A program made the translations under genes and the position numbers. DNA of 64,000 bases, taken from contig BDSI01000022.1 of the NCBI GenBank assembly GCA_003117195.1, forward strand, positions 867,752-931,751, read 5' to 3'. Every line of letters starts with the position of its first letter. The first letter of the stretch is position 1. Shown here piece after piece: positions 49,326-53,805 of the stretch. The notes under the pieces are model-generated. The model was given only the letters and a program-made list of their open reading frames with translations, made no database searches and was not told where the DNA came from. Source of the stretch: Eudorina sp. 2006-703-Eu-15 (lineage: Eukaryota; Chlorophyta; Chlorophyceae; Chlamydomonadales; Volvocaceae).

Positions 49326-52300
49326 TCAGGCCGCCCCTTGTGGCAGCTCGGCGCCTGGGATGTACTGCTCGCAGCGCAGCAGGTCCAGGCTGCGGCCGTG
49401 GTAGATGCTCACGTGCAGCGGCACCCGGAGACCCAGGTGGCCCATAACGCCCGCACTGGCGGCCGCCTGCACCTCCGCCAGCGCCCCCGCCAGCGCCCGC
49501 TGCGGCACGCACAGCGTCACCCGCGCCTCGCCGCACCACACCAGCGACACCCCTGACGATGCCCCGGCCGCACCGCCCAGTCCGCTCAGCTGCGAGGCCG
49601 CGCCAGGGTCCCCGCCGCTGGCCGTCGGCGCGGCCGCCGGTTGCGGGTCCGGCACGGACTGTCTCGTGGGCGAGGAGGGTTGAGCTGGTGGCGGCGGGCG
49701 CTGAGGTGCGGCGGTTTGGGGGGCGGTGTGGAGCAGCAGCGAGGCTTGCACGCGCTGCAGCGCCAGCGCCGCGGCGGTGCGGACCACCTCTGACGCGGCG
49801 CTCCCCAGCTGCATGCGGCCCAGCAGGCGCTGCAGCTTGGCGGCCGCCGCCACGCCGCCGGCGGTCAGCTGCCGCGTGGCGGGGCGCAGGCGACGGCCGG
49901 AGGGCAGCTGGATGAAGCCCTCCTTCTTGGCCTGAGCCTGTGACGAGCAGGCGCAGCGCGAACGGCACAGGCAGGCAGGTCGTGTGTGCAAGCGGGCACA
50001 TACGGTACATTCAATATACATATCGGATTATCACACACAGTTTCGAGGAGAAGGAGAATGGTGCTTGAATGGCGCTTGATTGATTGAAGTGGATTACAGC
50101 CGTAGCATCAGACACGCTTCTCACACGCGTCAGCAGCACCGGGACCCCACCTGGAGCTCCCCCCGGTGGCGAGCCACTCCAGGGAAGGCCTCTAAGAAGG
50201 ACGACACGAGCGCCGCTGCCGCAGCCTTGCCCCCGCAGCCCGGCGGCAGCCCCAGCGCCGCCGCCAGCTCCTTGTGACTGCCTCCCGCCAGCAGCGCGCG
50301 TGAGAGCACCTGCTGCGCCGCCAGCTCCAGGGCCGGCGGGGTGCACAGGCTGCTGCCGCCCCCGGTTGCGCCGCCGTCGGTCAGCGACCGCGGATGCAAA
50401 AGCTGGCGCAGCCGCTCTGCTTGGCTGCAATAATCAACCCCGGATACACGGGGTGATTTTAGGGGAACGGCACTATGCATGCTTGGACACGGGCAGAGGG
50501 GATTTTCGGGGTAGGATACTCATGCACGCCAGATGCACTGGATTGCATGAGGTATCGGCAATCGCTGCTGCTCACTACGCAGTCATGGACAGGGTCGGTG
50601 TCGACACACGCATCACGCAAGCGGACTGGTTTGGTGCAGGTCACAGACGGAACGCAGGCTCCCCCCACCTTGCTTGCCACGCTTCCGCCACGGCGGCCCA
50701 GGGCTGCGGCTGGTACAAGGCCTCGACCAGTCTGCGCACATTTGTGTCGGTGGCGAGTGCGGGGATGATCGCATGCCGAGCTGGCATCTTGGCCAAAGAG
50801 CAAGGCACCACAGGAGGAGCCCATAATCCTAGCATACCCTACAAGGTGACGCTGGGGTGTTGGACGCTGCACCCTCCTGTAAACCCTGTCCCTGTCCCTG
50901 TGGAAACTCGTCCCCGGTGTAGCGCGACCCGGAGCCGTCCCTTTTGCCATTGGTCCGTGTGCTGCCCCGAAATGAAAACCTCGCTCCGCCGCAACCCACC
51001 GTTCGTCGCCCGAGCAGTGGGCCACCACCGCCAAGTGCAGGTAGGGGTAGAGCACGGTGACGAAGGCGCAGCCGGGGGCAGGCCGGAGGAGCTCCTCGGC
51101 GGGGCACCGAACTGCCTGTGTGTATGCGCAACCGGGTGCACACGCACGTACACGTGTGCGCAGAGAGGACATCCGGTCCAGGAGACCGATACTGGTCTAC
51201 CAAGTGCATGACACTGTGTGATGTGAAATAGGCGAAGGTTAGAATAATGGACCAAGTGGGGCGGCCGTGCCATCATCGACACCGGGTGCCGGCAACAGCC
51301 ACACCCTGCGGCCAGAAATTCCCTAAGCAGAACCCAATTAGAGACATCTTAAGAGTTCGGGGCGGCATGCACTTGTGTTTAGAAAAGGAACCCGCCGGAC
51401 CGAGCCCATGCACGTGTGTACAGGTGCGTGAGCGTGTGCGTGTGCGCGTGCGTGCGGGGGAAGGGGAGGACGAAGGAGGGAGGTGATGCGGGCGGAGCCG
51501 CGAGGCGCGGCGAGGTGGGTCAAGTACCGCAGGTTCCGGACCGGACCTAAGCGAACGAGTGCGATAGCCGCAGGGCCGCACCACCCCAGCACACTTTTAT
51601 GCCAAGCCTGAGACAAGAGACTTCGCCTTGTCCCAATTACGCTACAACACTCTAAGACCAGGTCCCCGCAGCCCTTTCTGTTGCGGTCGCTACCGAAGTG
51701 GGGACGGGTCAGATCCTCACCGACACCGAGAGGATTTCCAATGGTGGTCCAGCACCCAACGTACCGCACGCCCCCCCACGTCCCGCGTCGCGCGGACGGG
51801 CCCCATCCACAGCCGCGCAGCCAGACAGTATTACACGGGATCACGCGGCATTCCTGCAGATTGGACAAAAACGAACCCGCCATGTACCTGCGGCGTCGCC
51901 ATGCGCAGCAGCTGTCCCGCGCGCGCGGCCGCCAGGCTATGATCGGCGGCACAGCAGGTGTCGGCGCACCAGACCTGGCTGGTGGGCAGCGCCAGGCGGA
52001 GGGGCTGCCGGGTTAGCGGGTCGGCCACCGCAACCACCGCCGTGCTGCACCTGGGGGCGCGAGGGCGGGGGCCATGGCGGGGGTAGCAACCGGCGGGGTG
52101 GTACCGCAAATGACAACGCACGGTTCCGCCACGTGACTGACCGTAAAACCAAAGGTGCGTTTACCAAGACTGGTAGATGGACACAACCGCCTGGTGTCTG
52201 TCCACGAGGGCGGGATCCCTGTTAGTGCTGGCACGACGACGCCAGGGATAGTAGCACCGTGTCAGGCTGCGGAAAAGGCAACGGGGCGCGTCGGTGTGGT

Positions 52301-53805
52301 AGGCGAGGCGGGTTTCCCTTGCGGGCCTCCTTGAAGTGCCTGGATTGCGGCCGTAGGCCTGCGGCTGCAGGCCGGCCCTGTCGGCTCACCTGCCAGGTCC
52401 CCTGCTGCTGGGCTGCGCTTCCGCGCCAAAGCTGAGCGCCATGCAGGGCCCGGGCCCGTGGACTTCCAGCAGCAACCCCTGGCGCAGAGCTTGAGGATCT
52501 GGCAGCGGTTGCTGAGGTTGCGGCTGCGGGCGTTGCGCCTCCGGAGCCGCCGCGTCCGCAGCCGCGGCATCGATGAAGAGGACCCGCAGCGGCAGGAGGC
52601 TCTGAGGGGGACGGAAGTGGGCGGCGTTGGGGAGTGGCAGCGTGCTCAGGAGTGGATGACGGGGGGCACCGCGCTTTCCATGCATCTACGACCCGGGTGC
52701 AGGTGGAATAGGCACGGCCCCGCCTCCTCGGGGCTCTAGCGCCACCGCCAACCAAACCGTGGCTCTCCCCGGCAAGAACCTCCCTGACATAAGGCATCTT
52801 ACCTGCAAATGAAGCTCGCCGTCTCGGCTGCTGCAGTACTGATGCTGCAGCGAAGGCGCCAGGGCGGGTGCGCTGCGCTCGGTGACCAGCACCAGGCCAT
52901 CGGCGGTTGCAGCAGCGGTGGCACCGGAATCGCCGTAGACACAGGCCAGCCTGCCCTCCAGTCCCGTCCGATGCATGGCGAACCGCGCCGATTGAGCAGC
53001 GCTTGACTCCCCGTCCCAACTCGCCCAGGTCTGGCAGGCGGTGCCAGCCGACGCCGTCCTGCAATGAGCGGGCTGCTGCTGCTGTTGAGGCCCGGTTCCC
53101 GCCTCCATGTCCACAGCGTCCTTGCCCAGACCCTCCGCCGCTGAGTCAAGAGCCGGCGCCGCCGGCCGTCCTCCCACGTTCGCTGCCGCTGCGGTGCATC
53201 CCGACGCGGCAAACAGCAGCGCGTCCCACGCAGCCGCCATCGCGACTGCCGCTGACCTGCGGGTCAGCAGACGCGCCAGCGCCTCCGCCCGGGTGCGCTC
53301 CGCTGGCGGCAGCGCTGCCCGGACGAAGAACGAGTCGACCAGCGGCGGCCGCCGGTCCACGGGCAGCCCGGCGAGCATCTCCGGCAGCAGCGCGGCGCCG
53401 CCCGGCCGCCGTGCCAGGAACTCGCGGGCGCATAGGGCGTCTACCGCAGCCGGGGTGGAGATATCCACAGGTCGGCGCAGCAGCTCCGAGACCAACCGGG
53501 CGCAAATGTCGACTGCGGCCTGCGCCCGGCCAAGCTCGGTCTTGCATGCGTCCTTGTCCAGCACCACGCCGGCACTTGCTGGGCGGGCCGTCGCAGCCGC
53601 GGAGCCCGCAGCGGATGTATCGGCCGGGACACCATGCAACACGCTGTGATTCGCATTTGGGTGGGGAAGGCCGCCAGGCAGCTCTGGCGCCGCTGCGTGC
53701 GCTGGGTGCAGGCGTTGTTCCGGCCGTGAGGCGACCGGTGACAGCGGCCGCAGGTGGTGGGTGCGCGACCGTGCGAGTGTGAGGGTGAGGGGCGCCTCAA
53801 TAAGT
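49326..53805 (-). other. POLQ: POLQ polymerase domain with degenerate active site
   Basis: Exons: 53805-52803, 52601-52390, 52050-51888, 51115-51000, 50731-50669, 50424-50151, 49937-49326; every junction keeps phase. [13 protein letters not shown]...[11 protein letters not shown] matches the start of family A polymerase domains. [32 protein letters not shown] aligns with motif A (normally DYSQxELRxxAHxSGD). The catalytic Asp reads Leu, Glu reads His, and Arg reads Ala. [19 protein letters not shown] (50318-50280 region) aligns with motif B, where the Lys of AKQ reads Gln and YG reads [15 protein letters not shown] matches [19 protein letters not shown] (about 49541-49520) replaces VHDELL of motif C, so HDE reads [16 protein letters not shown] matches the C-terminal strand. 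The fold seems retained but not the metal-binding residues. Confidence 0.78.

What the first reader, a model, noticed from the sequence alone, without database searches (positions are those of the whole stretch)
49326..53805. Polymerase theta homologue with an apparently dead polymerase active site but intact helicase
The spliced POLQ model is in frame across 26 exons, so this is not simply a frameshifted pseudogene. Helicase motifs II, III, V and VI are intact. In the polymerase domain, motif A (SADYSQxELR) aligns with [10 protein letters not shown]: the catalytic Asp is Leu. Motif B AKQxxYGxxYG aligns with [13 protein letters not shown]: the O-helix Lys is Gln. Motif C HDE reads CGE. All three losses together with an open frame suggest selection for a non-catalytic domain, for example scaffolding, helicase regulation or end-tethering. 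End joining would then need another polymerase. Family A polymerases require the two carboxylates for catalysis.
Basis: partly seen in the sequence, partly recalled or inferred. Interest (0 to 1): 0.88.

Follow-up and report, generated by a model that had tools for sequence, protein, structure and literature searches.

The report
Polymerase-dead DNA polymerase theta in algae
A green-alga DNA-repair gene keeps the motor half of DNA polymerase theta, but its polymerase half has lost the residues needed to make DNA, and related green algae keep a similarly broken domain, so end-joining repair in these algae may rely on another polymerase.

The parts
49326..64000 (-). POLQ-like gene, 28 exons in the window, 2,214 aa plus stop; 5' end beyond the window
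   Evidence: Spliced model, open frame, all 27 acceptors AG, 24 GT and 3 GC donors; protein aligns with P0002 and P0004 along its length, with P0001 and P0003 in part
60897..64000 (-). Helicase core, motifs II, III, V, VI (exons 1-8: 64000-63893, 63556-63281, 62993-62839, 62611-62222, 62042-61954, 61689-61644, 61372-61222, 60970-60897)
   Evidence: Pfam Helicase_C 51.6 bits (cut-off 23.5), DEAD 19.4 bits (below its cut-off of 26; motif I outside the window); 85-93% identity to P0002-P0004 in core columns
57990..60611 (-). HTH_61 and POLQ_helical domains (exons 9-15)
   Evidence: Pfam HTH_61 29.8 bits (24.3), POLQ_helical 48.5 bits (27); exon 12 ends at 59110 after correction
54954..56563 (-). 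Exonuclease-like domain (exons 19-20: 56563-55703, 55126-54954)
   Evidence: Active-POLQ profile matches residues 1193-1421 of the model, 23.2 bits, reaching into exon 21; 58-64% identity to relatives
51888..53805 (-). Thumb/insert region (exons 21-24: 53805-52803, 52601-52390, 52266-52258, 52050-51888)
   Evidence: 49-53% identity to relatives; no T-x-TGR in the spliced protein; apart from its first residues no profile match
49326..51115 (-). Degenerate palm and fingers (exons 25-28: 51115-51000, 50731-50669, 50424-50151, 49937-49326)
   Evidence: 65-70% identity to relatives, insert columns left out, GC3 0.87; fold match of the V. africanus equivalent
51029..51058 (-). Motif A equivalent [10 protein letters not shown] (Asp to Leu)
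50280..50318 (-). O-helix equivalent [13 protein letters not shown] (Lys to Gln, Tyr to Arg)
49527..49535 (-). Motif C equivalent CGE (CDE in two Volvox species, CGE in Gonium, CGA in Edaphochlamys)
   Evidence: hairpin turn in the V. africanus model

Best explanation
This is a pseudopolymerase form of DNA polymerase theta. Shown by sequence: a POLQ-like helicase with its motifs intact, joined in one open frame to a family A exonuclease-like and palm/fingers module that has lost catalytic residues and is conserved between genera; similar loss is found in every chlorophyte relative with a readable palm. Inferred: the helicase half still does ATP-driven work on single-stranded DNA (stripping bound proteins, annealing ends, protecting forks), the dead polymerase half is a structural arm that holds DNA or recruits partners, and gap filling is done by a separate polymerase. 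Inferred by bracketing only: the Chlamydomonas reinhardtii protein called POLQ1 is of this kind.
Against: No transcript, biochemical or genetic data for this gene. In the same tobacco study loss of either domain is enough to knock out theta-mediated end joining, and in Drosophila polymerase activity is required for crosslink and radiation-break repair (PMC5466332, abstract), so a POLQ without it should be a poor end-joining factor. Against the helicase core alone the volvocine palm evolves faster: ratios 5.9 and 7.4 at the upper edge of 106 active pairs (median 4.0, range 1.9-7.4), and 13.2 for a third pair with no matching bin; the milder figure includes a low-complexity insert in the volvocine helicase. 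Some relatives keep single catalytic residues, and P0016 has Glu, Lys and D-E at the three motifs. On the tree chlorophytes are set apart (100/100) from HELQ, fungal and active POLQ together, whose order is unresolved, so orthology to plant TEBICHI is not shown.
Confidence: 0.7

Rival explanations
1. The genome also carries a second, fully active POLQ, and the window gene is an old divergent paralogue, perhaps the one called POLQ2 in Chlamydomonas ('lacks a polymerase domain'). End joining is then conventional.
For: PMC8604939 (passages) describes POLQ1, required for templated repair, and POLQ2, said to lack a polymerase domain and to be HELQ-like; a domain this degenerate falls below the Pfam cut-off in the window and in P0001, P0002 and P0004. 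The chlorophyte clade does not join land-plant POLQ.
Against: Two helicase searches (lengths 905-2879 and 1587-5049 aa) listed 120 of 168 and 120 of 511 hits; none of the listed hits named as a chlorophyte has the live motifs. The family lies apart from the four HELQs sampled, and its members in Micractinium and Nannochloris are named TEBICHI.
Confidence: 0.28
2. The polymerase part is drifting toward loss; the frame survives by chance or because truncation would destabilise the helicase.
For: Palm divergence relative to the helicase core is at or above the active range; the thumb/insert is only 46-54% identical between genera.
Against: 59-70% palm identity between genera, stretches such as YQPQPW kept in all five volvocine rows, GC3 0.87, annotated proteins of four relatives that read through the palm (P0003 then runs into a fused neighbour), palm remnants from volvocines to trebouxiophytes.
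Confidence: 0.1
3. The polymerase is still active, using other acidic residues or an altered metal site.
For: Volvox keeps D-E at motif C, Micractinium the motif A Asp; Nannochloris-type rows have Glu at motif A and keep Lys, and in the register P0016 and P0124 have D-E at motif C.
Against: The window has Leu, Gln and CGE. In no row are the motif A Asp, the Lys and motif C D-E together, the O-helix Tyr is lost in 13 of 13, the Asn and most Gln of the primer-binding set are gone, and the T-x-GR region finds no profile match.
Confidence: 0.06
4. Gene-model or assembly error hides the real catalytic exons.
For: Three GC-AG donors and a 9-nt exon are needed.
Against: Annotated proteins of Volvox, Gonium and Edaphochlamys have Leu at motif A in the same context; no coding-strand frame in the gene holds the full live motifs.
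Confidence: 0.02

Closest known systems
DNA polymerase theta (POLQ; plant TEBICHI)
   Same: Helicase, HTH, POLQ_helical, exonuclease-like and palm/fingers order in one protein; Pol theta chains are the best profile matches in the PDB for the helicase and for the polymerase half
   Different: Catalytic Asp, Lys and Tyr absent, CGE for HDE; T-x-GR region not recognisable; large low-complexity inserts
HELQ / Hel308 helicases (including the Chlamydomonas POLQ2 label)
   Same: Related SF2 helicase core
   Different: The four HELQs sampled form a separate clade; that HELQ has no polymerase remnant is recalled
Inactivated C-terminal polymerase module of Pol epsilon
   Same: A polymerase fold without catalysis kept as a structural part of a larger enzyme (titles and abstract starts only: PMC2669801, PMC7308368, PMC6265327)
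   Different: Family B, fused to an active polymerase; here family A, fused to a helicase
Tobacco polq deltaPol lines
   Same: Helicase kept, polymerase function missing (PMC12181080, passages)
   Different: Engineered deletion, defective in end joining; here a natural, conserved inactivation

Membership tests
POLQ (DNA polymerase theta) | POLQ-type SF2 helicase with motifs I-VI | tested here: met
   Motifs II, III, V, VI in the window, motif I only in relatives; Pol theta helicase 1e-165 with the profile of relatives
POLQ (DNA polymerase theta) | POLQ_helical and HTH_61 domains after the helicase | tested here: met
   Both above Pfam cut-off
POLQ (DNA polymerase theta) | C-terminal family A polymerase homology in the same chain | tested here: met
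   Profile of relatives hits Pol theta polymerase at 2.5e-30; 13 of 24 chlorophyte rows match the active-POLQ profile, 0 of 36 controls; Pfam alone is below its cut-off
POLQ (DNA polymerase theta) | Catalytic residues: motif A Asp, O-helix Lys/Tyr, motif C HDE | tested here: not met
   Leu, Gln, Arg, CGE in the window
POLQ (DNA polymerase theta) | Groups with active POLQ in a helicase tree | tested here: inconclusive
   Chlorophytes are set apart (100/100) from HELQ, fungal and active POLQ together, whose order is unresolved
POLQ (DNA polymerase theta) | DNA synthesis and theta-mediated end joining | not testable with these tools
   Needs biochemistry and genetics
HELQ | Groups with HELQ and carries no polymerase remnant | tested here: not met
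   Polymerase remnant present; outside the clade of four animal HELQs
Pseudopolymerase (inactivated polymerase module) | Polymerase fold kept, catalytic residues lost, open frame conserved across species | tested here: met
   inactivity itself is inferred from residues, not measured

The most novel reading that the evidence does not exclude
Core chlorophyte algae, Chlamydomonas reinhardtii included, carry only a polymerase-dead Pol theta, so their POLQ1-dependent microhomology end joining, templated insertions and transgene integration run on a helicase plus dead polymerase scaffold, with synthesis handed to another polymerase: end joining 'by Pol theta' without Pol theta synthesis.
Probability: 0.45. 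Interest if true: 0.92.

Novelty: new variant of a known kind. Interest (0 to 1): 0.74.

Why it matters
Pol theta's polymerase is held to be needed for microhomology end joining. An algal lineage that keeps the protein but not the catalytic residues is a natural separation-of-function experiment. In Chlamydomonas, POLQ1 loss changes break-repair outcomes, random transgene integration and oligonucleotide-templated repair (PMC8495919, PMC8604939, PMC13205664, passages), and those results are read as polymerase theta action. If POLQ1 is of this kind, that reading changes, and the role of the helicase half becomes directly testable.

Tried and rejected
Pseudogene: rejected (open frame, relatives, identity). 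Hidden live exons: six-frame scans found none on the coding strand. HELQ membership: rejected on the tree and the polymerase remnant. A first AF2 job on 1,155 residues of V. africanus with 5 rows failed (pLDDT 34.6) and was not used. Residue reading by hmmsearch left most volvocine catalytic columns unaligned, so MAFFT and the predicted hairpin were used; the two disagree on motif C of P0016 and P0124, where I prefer MAFFT because the D-E then falls in the helix after the second strand. P0125's palm rests on MAFFT alone (no profile match). My first gene model had two wrong junctions (exons 12 and 23), corrected against relatives; searches used the uncorrected model. dN/dS: not possible, no relatives' DNA held. 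Synteny with Chlamydomonas: the passages seen of PMC4140758 gave no neighbour list. Rfam: 0 matches. No title, abstract start or passage I saw from the library searches reports an inactive algal POLQ; the library holds only openly licensed papers.

Full report
What is there. The minus strand from 64000 to 49326 carries one long spliced gene. I assembled 28 exons by reading splice sites and corrected two junctions against relatives. The product is 2,214 residues inside the window, open to a TGA at 49326; the start, with helicase motif I, lies beyond the window. Of 27 introns 24 have GT donors and 3 GC donors, and exon 23 is only 9 nt. The protein aligns with V. africanus P0002 and Edaphochlamys P0004 along its length and with V. 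reticuliferus P0001 and Gonium P0003 in part, without breaks at my junctions; the relatives' own exon structures were not seen.

Helicase half. Pfam finds Helicase_C, POLQ_helical and HTH_61 above their cut-offs, and DEAD below its cut-off, motif I being outside the window. Motifs II, III, V and VI are intact. A profile of 11 chlorophyte relatives scores the Pol theta helicase at 1e-165 and Hel308 at 1e-70.

The active site. In the window motif A Asp is Leu, the O-helix Lys is Gln and Tyr is Arg, and motif C reads CGE. Across 13 chlorophyte rows (window, P0001-P0004, P0012-P0016, P0123-P0125; P0014-P0016 bear no species name and are placed by the trees) the motif A Asp survives in 1 (Micractinium; Glu in the three Nannochloris-type rows), the O-helix Lys in 3, its Tyr in 0, and no palm holds HDE. 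In the V. africanus model the hairpin turn is C-D-E, so the two Volvox species keep the two acids of motif C; the MAFFT register is off by about two residues there and I do not count that as loss in Volvox. In the alignment P0016 and P0124 have D-E at motif C; I think the MAFFT placement is better but it is not settled. In the other hits with those columns aligned the Asp is kept in 167 of 168, the Lys in 167 of 168 and the motif C Asp in 163 of 164; 40 of them were picked for their motifs, and by strict pattern 149 of 179 profile-matching non-chlorophyte hits had all three motifs, many of the other 30 being partial models or pattern misses. The exception at all three columns is P0022, an unnamed EukProt protein that groups with land plants (100/99): a second, apparently independent loss.

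Selection, not simple decay. Identity of the window protein to P0001-P0004 is 65-70% in palm/fingers (insert columns left out), 58-64% in the exonuclease-like part and 49-53% in the thumb/insert; to P0002-P0004 it is 85-93% in the helicase core. GC3 is 0.87 in the palm, 0.80 in the helicase; introns are 59% GC. Relative to the whole helicase segment the palm diverges as in active POLQs (1.33-1.70 in three volvocine pairs against 1.31-1.85 in 23 active pairs of similar helicase identity), but the volvocine segment includes a low-complexity insert. Relative to the helicase core alone two pairs (5.9, 7.4) lie at the upper edge of 106 active pairs (median 4.0, range 1.9-7.4) and a third (13.2) has no matching bin. 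The fair reading is purifying selection with changed or relaxed constraint. No dN/dS was possible.

How wide. Three protein searches gave 228 proteins (4 hits; 120 listed of 168; 120 listed of 511). I sorted 23 as chlorophyte by name or tree; 12 of these plus the window have an alignable palm, while the other 11 gave no palm match to the active profile and I did not examine why in each. None of the 23 has the live motif A or motif B pattern; one (P0012) has an HDE, outside the palm. P0033, first counted with the other 205, falls in the chlorophyte clade on a long branch; it too lacks the motifs. Nineteen chlorophyte rows lie on one side of a 100/100 branch, with the window beside V. africanus (100/99); Tetraselmis, trebouxiophytes and volvocines come in about the order expected from recalled taxonomy. 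On the other side HELQ, fungal and active POLQ are unresolved in order, so an old paralogue is possible. In that tree the stretches cut out for some rows overshot; columns filled in under 30% of rows were dropped. C. reinhardtii and V. carteri did not appear in any list; I do not know why.

What it means for known work. In C. reinhardtii, POLQ mutants lose most microhomology deletions, templated repair and most random integration (PMC8495919, PMC8604939, PMC13205664; passages); an earlier uncomplemented deletion strain fits (PMC4140758, passages). ku80 mutants with POLQ present show templated insertions. If POLQ1 belongs to this family, as its recalled position between Edaphochlamys and Volvox suggests, those events need another polymerase. 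If instead this family is POLQ2, described as lacking a polymerase domain, a live POLQ1 must exist that the listed part of two searches did not show in any named chlorophyte. I put somewhat under two to one on the former. In tobacco the authors assign replication-stress tolerance to the helicase part but find that losing either part abolishes theta-mediated end joining (PMC12181080, passages); in Drosophila polymerase activity is needed for break and crosslink repair (PMC5466332, abstract). Both argue that a polymerase-dead POLQ would need a partner polymerase.

Mechanism. Most likely the ATP-driven helicase works on single-stranded DNA at broken ends and stalled forks, and the dead domain clamps DNA or docks partners, with synthesis by another enzyme. 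The first half follows from the intact motor; the second is inference. Whether the genome has a second POLQ could not be tested: the genome search was requested 20 times and never answered.

Noticed in passing
P0022 (EukProt g2781.t1, 1470 aa): An unnamed POLQ that groups with land plants (100/99) also has a degraded polymerase site (Glu for motif A Asp, Arg for Lys, no HDE at motif C): an apparently independent inactivation.
   Followed up: partly
window 25044-28539: About 208 copies of a 17-bp unit (CCTTTCGGGCATCGCTC) form a 3.5 kb array that stays open in several frames on both strands (stop-free stretches up to 1,388 codons), with AT skew -0.61 in 26001-28000.
   Followed up: no
window 61954, 61222, 56813: Three of 27 introns in this gene use GC donors.
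   Followed up: partly
window 52266-52258: A 9-nt microexon, needed to match the Volvox proteins.
   Followed up: yes
P0003 (Gonium pectorale, 3916 aa): The public gene model fuses the POLQ-like gene with a neighbour carrying kinase-type Pfam domains and drops helicase motif VI; probably an annotation error.
   Followed up: no
window 5306-5441: Hexamer repeat GTATGG, about 23 copies, 97% matched.
   Followed up: no
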